Assembly: GCA_030148915.1 (NCBI GenBank)
Contig: JASBSN010000055.1
Span: 1-57,808 of the forward strand
Direction of reading: 5' to 3'
Source: Thiogranum sp.
GTDB taxonomy: Bacteria; Pseudomonadota; Gammaproteobacteria; DSM-19610
DNA: 57,808 nt
Of this stretch, positions 1 through 26,969 are shown one piece after another (position 1 is the first letter of the stretch; every line of letters begins with the position of its first letter). The position numbers and the translations under genes were made by a program. The notes beneath the pieces are model-generated. The model saw only the letters and a program-made list of their open reading frames with translations, did no database searches and had not been told where the DNA came from.

Positions 1-127
1 CCCCCAGCCCCCCCCGCCCCCGCCATGGGTTTTTGGGGTCCGGGGCCGGCCGCCCACATCCCCCAAACCCCTGTGCCCGGCGCCGGGACGACAGGCACCG
101 TGGCATCAAGGGAAGAAGATTGGTGCC

Positions 128-208
128 GGGTTGCGGCGTGGTATTGCCTCGCTGGCTTAGGGTGCGCGAGCGCACATGCGCTTGCGAGGCAATACCACGC
201 CGCAACCC
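128..208 (-). repeat. Large palindromic element, copy A (25-bp perfect arms, CCTAAGCC core)
   Basis: The left arm 128-152 and right arm 184-208 are perfect reverse complements over 25 bp. The 31-nt centre (153-183) contains a 5-bp hairpin (162-166 with 171-175, loop CGAG). Read on the minus strand the hairpin is preceded by GCAT and followed by CCTAAGCCA, the same layout as the palindromes at 4449-4533 and 26705-26783. The arm sequence is unrelated to the arms of those copies, but is the same sequence as the local 38-bp tandem unit. Confidence 0.85.
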
Positions 209-335
209 TGGGGCGGGGGTCCTTGAAGCGATGCCGTCCGCAACCCGGGTGCTGGGGTAATGACGCAATGCCATCCGCACCCCTAGTGCGACGGTTATTA
301 AAGCAATACCACACCGCTGCCCGCGTGTAGTGGTC
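187..335. repeat. About four imperfect 38-bp tandem units
   Basis: A motif resembling GCAATACCACNCCGCAACCC recurs with its leading GC at 189, 228, 265 and 303, a period of 37-39 bp. The copies differ at many positions, so this is a degenerate tandem array rather than a recent expansion. The first unit is also the right arm of palindrome A. An inverted unit forms its left arm, and a further inverted partial match lies near 94-112. Not a CRISPR: repeats are imperfect and there are no distinct spacers. Confidence 0.7.
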
Positions 336-4421: not shown

Positions 4422-4448
4422 CCCCCAAGCTGCACCAACGCCCATAAA

Positions 4449-4533
4449 GCGTCTTTCGCGCGGTGCAAGGTTTTTGGTGCATGCGCCGCCCGCGGCGCCC
4501 TAAGCCAAAAACCTTGCACCGCGCGAAAGACGC
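4449..4533 (+). repeat. Large palindromic element, copy B (29-bp perfect arms)
   Basis: The arms 4449-4477 and 4505-4533 are perfect reverse complements over 29 bp. The 27-nt centre holds a 6-bp hairpin (4483-4488 with 4493-4498) flanked by TGCAT on the left and CCTAAG on the right. A 41-nt core (4471-4511) matches copy C at 37 positions, while the outer arms of B and C are unrelated in sequence. It lies between convergent genes, directly after radA, so a role in ending transcription is possible; there is no terminal U-run outside the stem. Confidence 0.9.
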
Positions 4534-4536
4534 CAG

Positions 4537-4586
4537 CACGGAGGCCACTTACTCATCACGGAGGCCACTTACGGCGCCCTAAGCCA
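4537..4586. repeat. 16-base direct repeat plus a half-copy of the palindrome core
   Basis: CACGGAGGCCACTTAC occurs at 4537-4552 and again at 4557-4572. The second copy runs straight into CGGCGCCCTAAGCCA (4572-4586), identical to 4493-4507 inside palindrome B. This looks like a duplicated or rearranged right half of the element, without a matching left half. Confidence 0.7.
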
Positions 4587-4766
4587 TCGAGGGACTACCC
4601 GACGGGACCTCTGGGTCTGGCGGAGACTCTATCCGATGTTCCCGCATTATGAGCATGAACCCTCAGCTCGATGCTCATCCGTTGAACCTTCTCGCAACGG
4701 ACTGAAAGGCGCTGGGCGGCCGCAGCGTAAAAGAAAAATGCAGACTTCGTCAGCGCGCCGGCAGCT

Positions 4767-26679: not shown

Positions 26680-26704
26680 CCGAAATAAGCGGGTACTCAA
26701 CGCG

Positions 26705-26783
26705 GCTTTTGAGCCGTCCAGGATTTTTGGTGCATGCGCCGCTTGCGGCGTCCTAAGCGAAAAATCCTGGGCGGCTCAAAAGC
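26705..26783 (+). repeat. Large palindromic element, copy C (24-bp arms)
   Basis: Arms 26705-26728 and 26760-26783 pair over 24 bp with a single G-U (T26717 with G26771). The centre holds the hairpin CGCCGC-TT-GCGGCG, flanked by GGTGCAT and TCCTAAGC. The 41-nt core 26724-26764 differs from copy B at four positions, but the outer arms (a GCTTTTGAGCCG sequence here) are unrelated to those of B or A. It lies between dsbC and the gene at 26970. Confidence 0.9.
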
Positions 26784-26969
26784 GGCCCGCAGCAAACCCG
26801 GATCAAAGCCGGCGAGGAGCGCTGAATCCGGCTGCCGCCGGGTAGCGGAAGCAAATGCCGGCGTTGGCGAATCCGTAGCCCGACTCATGGGTCGCAGGGG
26901 TGATCCCGCAGGCTTAGCTTTCCCGCCGGTCTGCCGATCTTATGGCTGAATCAGCAAGGGCGAACGTAA

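What the first reader, a model, noticed from the sequence alone, without database searches (positions are those of the whole stretch)
4449..4533. A family of three palindromes with a conserved core and freely varying but self-complementary arms
Seen directly: elements at 128-208, 4449-4533 and 26705-26783 each fold into a long stem (25, 29 and 24 bp) with an asymmetric internal loop (GCAT on one side, CCTAAG on the other) and a short GC cap hairpin. B and C share a 41-nt core at 37 positions. Outer arms share no sequence between copies yet remain complementary within each. This is structural conservation with independent sequence, unlike ordinary REP or IS-derived repeats, whose stems keep their sequence. 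Inference: a folded single-stranded DNA or RNA recognised by shape plus the bulge bases (as integron attC sites are), or a core that converts flanking DNA into an inverted duplication on insertion.
Basis: partly seen in the sequence, partly recalled or inferred. Interest (0 to 1): 0.88.

Follow-up and report, generated by a model that had tools for sequence, protein, structure and literature searches.

The report
Giant-stem intergenic DNA palindromes in Thiogranum
About 60 copies of a roughly 85-base DNA hairpin lie between the genes of this sulfur bacterium; the loop keeps its sequence while the 30-base-pair stem keeps changing in matched pairs, which makes the family a natural test of how DNA palindromes stay perfect.

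Summary
The three window elements belong to a family of at least 62 catalogued copies in this ~3.2 Mb Thiogranum draft genome. Each has a near-perfect ~30-bp stem, an asymmetric internal loop (GCAT / CCTAA) and a GC cap hairpin. All copies are intergenic, mostly between convergent genes. The arms are not unrelated: they fall into two subtypes (T1, T2), normally present as inverted T1/T2 pairs. Arm positions change in matched pairs, almost without wobble or one-sided intermediates (97.8% of cells paired; 278 two-sided changes). Orthologous elements in sister species show the same paired changes in place. Core-versus-flank inversions in 4 of 51 callable copies, and clustering of paired changes, point to replication template switching between the arms. 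Other Thiogranum species carry relatives, one with its own ~25-copy family and a different loop; no other genus sampled does. No transposase was found linked to the elements. attC membership fails. GTAG/CGTC REP membership also fails on stem length and tag, although anatomy and genomic habits are REP/BIME-like. Verdict: a new, genus-restricted, giant-stem variant of REP/BIME-like extragenic palindromes, with arms kept complementary at the DNA level.

The parts
127..209 (-). Element A, subtype T2: 25-bp perfect outer stem, imperfect inner pairs (AAGC/GCCA), loop GCAT/CCTAA, 5-bp cap hairpin; between rplI (on another contig) and dnaB
   Evidence: orthologous element in G001
4449..4533 (+). Element B, subtype T1: 30-bp stem, loop GCAT (4479-4482) / CCTAA (4499-4503), 6-bp cap hairpin; 27 nt after radA, convergent with the FHA/PilZ-like gene
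4444..4448 (+). Left foot flank ATAAA, conserved in T1 copies
4534..4546 (+). Right foot flank CAGCACGGAGGCC, equivalent of the T1 consensus CTGCACCGA.GCC
4573..4623 (+). Remnant of a T2 partner: right half of the core plus right arm (4583-4612) and the reverse complement of the T2 left flank (GGGTCTGGCGG); left arm lost
   Evidence: read against the T2 consensus (manual)
26702..26786 (+). Element C, subtype T1: 28 of 30 stem positions paired (G-T counted as a pair), same loop, 6-bp cap; 22 nt after dsbC

Best explanation
These are REP/BIME-like extragenic DNA palindromes with an unusually long stem, descended from small non-autonomous mobile repeats. The conserved part (GCAT / CCTAA loop with GC cap, plus a few fixed stem positions) is most likely the strand-specific recognition site of a protein that acts on folded single-stranded DNA; this step is inferred, and the protein was not found. 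The T1-spacer-inverted-T2 pair is the ancestral unit that spread between genes, mostly convergent ones (shown as anatomy; the spreading is inferred). After insertion, the arms stay complementary mainly through template switching between arms during replication. That copies a change from one arm to the other and now and then turns the core over. It explains paired changes without intermediates, adjacent paired changes and inverted cores (patterns shown; the mechanism is inferred). Selection to keep the fold may add to this.
For: Family of 62 catalogued copies, 35 complete T1 and 22 complete T2. Covariation 0.678 against 0.184 in shuffles and at most 0.138 in slid controls; 278 two-sided cells. 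Broader set with relatives: 0.835, one-sided changes almost absent. All intergenic: 30 convergent, 13 tandem, 4 divergent of 47. All 16 close pairs are T1+T2. Orthologous sites: gltD-hemE G004/G014, 4 paired changes and 1 single; rplI-dnaB G000/G001, 8 paired and 4 single, all four at the outermost or innermost positions; gmk-yicC G000/G004, 7 paired, 6 single mostly in an already imperfect inner stem. Core inverted relative to flanks in 4 against 47 normal; three of the direct-orientation pairs (C14, C51, C58) contain exactly one such core. Adjacent paired changes in excess: T1 682 against 603 (sd 17), T2 187 against 148 (sd 10). Arm homogenisation plus spacer inversion is the published signature of template switching (PMC8604942; PMC8794818, which calls paired change plus loop inversion the strongest support). 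A stem bulge needed for recognition by a REP-processing enzyme is known in E. coli (PMC8266576).
Against: No transposase is linked: Y1-type genes are absent from G011, G004 and G014 (incomplete genomes), and the one in G000 has no flanking palindrome. G-T mismatches exceed A-C mismatches 21 to 9, which hints at some RNA tolerance or mutation bias. Stem length stays at 29-32 bp in 45 of 57 copies, which suggests constraint beyond template switching. Pairwise counts among paralogues are not independent, and the adjacency excess is modest (13-27%). Orthologous comparisons are few.
Confidence: 0.6

Rival explanations
1. Ordinary selection keeps the stem: the element works as a folded DNA or RNA (3'-end stabiliser, RNase III site, gyrase or IHF site), mismatches are harmful, and second mutations compensate.
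For: Fixed stem length; invariant positions inside the arms, e.g. T23-A; 3'-end and convergent location; G-T above A-C; arms change less (4-5 of 30) than the flanking intergenic DNA (about 27-38%) in G004/G014.
Against: G-T pairs are only about 1-2% of stem cells, where transcribed RNA stems use G-U freely (general knowledge); the close-pair bins are not dominated by one-sided changes; selection does not predict inverted cores; chimeras without a stem persist at L029 and L074.
Confidence: 0.25
2. RNA elements or bidirectional terminators specific to the 3' ends of genes such as radA and dsbC.
For: Location after stop codons.
Against: T-runs lie in the 5' arm and A-runs in the 3' arm, opposite to a terminator; the close relative G004 and others with readable radA 3' ends have no element there; no Rfam family at threshold.
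Confidence: 0.05
3. Integron attC-like recombination sites used by the IntI found in this genome.
For: A strong IntI hit on C77 (447 bits); folded strand with unpaired bases.
Against: 0 of 62 have RYYYAAC...GTTRRRY; dispersed and often inverted pairs rather than cassette arrays; the only element in the stretch of the IntI contig read is the gmk-yicC copy, about 6 kb away.
Confidence: 0.03
4. Each insertion converts flanking DNA into an inverted duplication.
For: Stem of 40 bp at C51:93651.
Against: Arms are homologous between loci and feet have conserved flanks. The 110-bp stems at C26 and C37 lie at contig ends and look like assembly fold-backs.
Confidence: 0.04

Closest known systems
REP / BIME (palindromic units) of E. 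coli and the GTAG-tagged REP superfamily, processed by TnpA-REP (RAYT)
   Same: Extragenic, dispersed, enriched at 3' ends of genes, imperfect palindrome with a strand-specific bulge and cap hairpin, paired as inverted heterodimers. T1 copies mostly have CTGC (GCAG on the other strand) at the foot, within the GYAG degeneracy reported in PMC3733652.
   Different: Stem about 30 bp against the published 5-13 bp; no GTAG; T2 copies and the G011 family lack the T1 tag; no linked RAYT; almost no G-T pairs, whereas PMC3733652 notes that GT pairing is often seen in GTAG repeats.
CGTC-tagged REPs (PMC3733652)
   Same: Extragenic inverted dimers. Repeats starting CGTCATTGCGAGC and CGTCATTCCGG occur in sister Thiogranum genomes, one of them in the same rplI-dnaB gap.
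   Different: Different tag, 8-9 bp stems, 4-5 nt loops; no sequence relation to the elements here was seen.
ERIC/IRU, YPAL/RU-2, CIR (reviewed in PMC2229807)
   Same: About 100-200 bp intergenic non-coding repeats with long stem loops; CIRs have two arms like the T1-T2 unit.
   Different: Similarity is of form only; those families are described by a shared sequence, not by freely covarying arms (not tested by alignment here).
Integron attC sites
   Same: Recognised as a folded strand with unpaired bases and low sequence conservation.
   Different: No attC boxes, no cassette array, conserved part at the tip rather than at the base.

Membership tests
REP (GTAG/CGTC superfamilies) | Short palindrome with 5-13 bp (GTAG) or 8-9 bp (CGTC) stem | tested here: not met
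   Stem 29-32 bp in 45 of 57; published limits in PMC3733652
REP (GTAG/CGTC superfamilies) | Terminal unpaired GTAG or CGTC tag | tested here: not met
   T1 foot CTGC in 20 copies and shifted CCTG in 3, i.e. GCAG not GTAG; T2 mixed; G011 family without it
REP (GTAG/CGTC superfamilies) | High-copy, extragenic, often inverted dimers | tested here: met
REP with RAYT (REPtron) | Linked Y1 HUH (RAYT) gene flanked by the repeat | tested here: not met
Integron attC | RYYYAAC and GTTRRRY boxes at the ends | tested here: not met
   0 of 62
Integron attC | IntI gene in the genome | tested here: met
   C77:563-1504, 447 bits, but no attC array seen in 12 kb
MITE with terminal inverted repeats and target duplication | Target-site duplication at empty or filled sites | not tested
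   Sister species are too diverged between genes to place the ends
Intrinsic terminator | GC stem followed by a T-run on the coding strand | tested here: not met
   T-run is in the 5' arm, A-run in the 3' arm

The most novel reading that the evidence does not exclude
A living record of replication template switching: a family of dispersed palindromes whose arms evolve almost only by one-step coupled changes and core flips, so the stem is kept perfect by a mutational process rather than by selection, while the core co-changes genome-wide with an unknown single-strand DNA-binding partner (GCAT/CCTAA in G000, GCCTT/CCTGAA in G011).
Probability: 0.35. Interest if true: 0.78.

Novelty: new variant of a known kind. 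Interest (0 to 1): 0.6.

Why it matters
Paired changes in a stem are usually taken as proof of selection on structure. Here about 60 unlinked stems in one genome, plus orthologues in sister species, show paired changes with hardly any intermediates, together with core inversions. That makes it directly testable whether palindromes and hairpins are maintained by template switching or by selection. It also adds a REP-like family with a stem more than twice the published length and no known transposase.

Tried and rejected
RAYT link: Y1_Tnp genes found but not linked, and absent in the copy-rich G011. Rfam: only a chance mir-638 hit at E 0.092, far under threshold. Plasmid search: no match to the T1-T2 unit. 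Viral contigs: one core match (L215) that folds into no such stem. Named genome scan: one Nitrosomonadales core match (L076) without stem arms. G011-type core in 369 class genomes: only Thiogranum. The first genome contigs pattern was too strict and found nothing. Target-site duplications were not pursued because sister species are too diverged between genes. G010 model hits are the unrelated GTCATTGCGAGC repeat or chance.

Full report
1. The observation. The three inverted repeats are exact and head the list for the window. Single-strand DNA folding gives -48 kcal/mol for B, with z-scores of about -12, -10 and -8 for B, A and C. A strict core pattern matches 32 times in the 3.22 Mb draft genome and never in the reversed control. 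The window is contig C130 of 135.

2. Anatomy. Thirty-one copies align without a gap over 85 columns: 30-bp stem, GCAT on one side and CCTAA on the other, a 6-bp GC hairpin with a 4-nt loop. A covariance model from them finds about 67 places genome-wide, several cut by contig ends. I catalogued 62 with sequence in hand: 54 with a 16-nt cap, the rest with 10-15 nt. Stems are 29-32 bp in 45 of 57 complete copies.

3. Two arm families. Contrary to the finding, arms share sequence: T1 has consensus GCGGgTTtc..CCGGT.c.gGGTTTTTGGT and T2 has aGAGgT.C.GcCGGGtAg.CCcTCGATGGT. Mean left-arm identity is 70% within T1 and 61% within T2. T1 carries flanks TAAA| and |CTGCACCGA.GCC; T2 carries CCAGACCC| and |GGACC. 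All 16 close pairs are one T1 and one T2, normally in opposite orientation about 140 bp apart. In the window, B is followed by the right half of a T2 (4573-4623), so B was such a pair.

4. Covariation. In A1, 97.8% of stem cells are standard pairs. There are 278 two-sided changes and a covariation score of 0.678, against 0.184 in shuffles and at most 0.138 when partners are slid. Adding relatives with other caps raises the score to 0.835. One-sided changes are nearly absent. Over 57 complete copies there are 1572 Watson-Crick cells, 23 G-T and 58 other mismatches; 17 of the 58 are at the outermost position. Transcribed RNA stems normally use G-U much more (general knowledge), so the constraint or process acts on DNA.

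5. Relatives and orthologues. Elements occur only in sister species of the genus among 76 relatives and 369 class genomes. G011 has its own family of about 25 copies with loop GCCTT/CCTGAA and one subset GCATT/CTTAA. At the same gene gaps in different species the stem changed in pairs: gltD-hemE in G004/G014, 4 paired and 1 single; rplI-dnaB in G000/G001, 8 paired and 4 single, the singles at the two ends of the stem; gmk-yicC in G000/G004, 7 paired and 6 single, most singles in an already imperfect inner stem. Blast of flanks shows that four of the G001 sites are also occupied or have remnants in G000. The radA 3' ends that could be read in sister species have no element, including close relative G004.

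6. How the arms stay matched. Two further patterns favour template switching over selection alone. First, the core is inverted relative to its conserved flanks in 4 copies against 47 normal (6 unclear), and the direct-orientation pairs at C14, C51 and C58 each contain one such core. Second, paired changes sit next to each other more than site variability predicts (T1 682 against 603, sd 17; T2 187 against 148, sd 10). Arm homogenisation and spacer inversion are the stated products of template switching between inverted repeats (PMC8604942). PMC8794818 calls compensatory change plus loop inversion the strongest support for the model and found it very rare in rRNA. Chimeras with one T1 and one T2 arm (L029, L074 at 5707) show that a stem is not rebuilt once the arms are unrelated. 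In G000 the gltD-hemE site holds only the outer 14 bp of a stem (L107 2586-2616), a typical palindrome deletion unless it is an assembly error.

7. Spread and partner. All 62 are between genes: 30 convergent, 13 tandem, 4 divergent, the rest at contig ends (simple ORF calling). The invariant asymmetric loop gives the folded strand a polarity, as the bulge in E. coli REPs does for TnpA-REP (PMC8266576). But no Y1 gene is linked and none was found in G011, so the dispersal enzyme is unknown and the partner is inferred. An integron integrase exists on C77, with no attC array seen and no attC boxes in the elements.

8. Limits. Drafts and MAGs; some contig ends (C26, C37) are fold-back palindromes and should be ignored. 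Collection searches may leave out near records. E-values are rough. Paralogue comparisons are not independent. No strain-level data were available, so the mutational mechanism is inferred, not shown.

Noticed in passing
L206 / L216 (G000 C77:545-1516): A strong integron integrase (TIGR02249, 447 bits) with no recognisable attC array in the 12 kb read.
   Followed up: partly
L138 (C26:1-260) and L128 (C37:1-280): Contig ends that are palindromic for about 100 bp on each side of an element, probably assembly fold-back; C26 should join the window's contig start by rplI-dnaB synteny.
   Followed up: partly
L086 1217-1297, L087 329-410, L114 328-407, L118 224-292: Other long inverted repeats in sister species (GTCATTGCGAGCG..., GTCATTCCGGCGC...) resembling CGTC-tagged REPs, one of them in the same rplI-dnaB gap that holds element A here.
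   Followed up: no
window 298-322: A degenerate copy (18 of 25) of the arm of element A lies downstream, with weaker arm-like stretches near 226 and 263.
   Followed up: partly
L029 around 1500; L074 5680-5760: Chimeric elements with a T1 arm on one side and a T2 arm on the other, no stem: probable recombination through the shared core.
   Followed up: partly
G011 loci L151, L153, L156, L158, L162-L181: A separate amplified family with loop GCCTT/CCTGAA and no Y1 transposase found in that genome.
   Followed up: partly
L107 2586-2616: Collapsed element (14-bp arms, 3-nt loop) at gltD-hemE in this genome, where G004 and G014 have full elements.
   Followed up: partly
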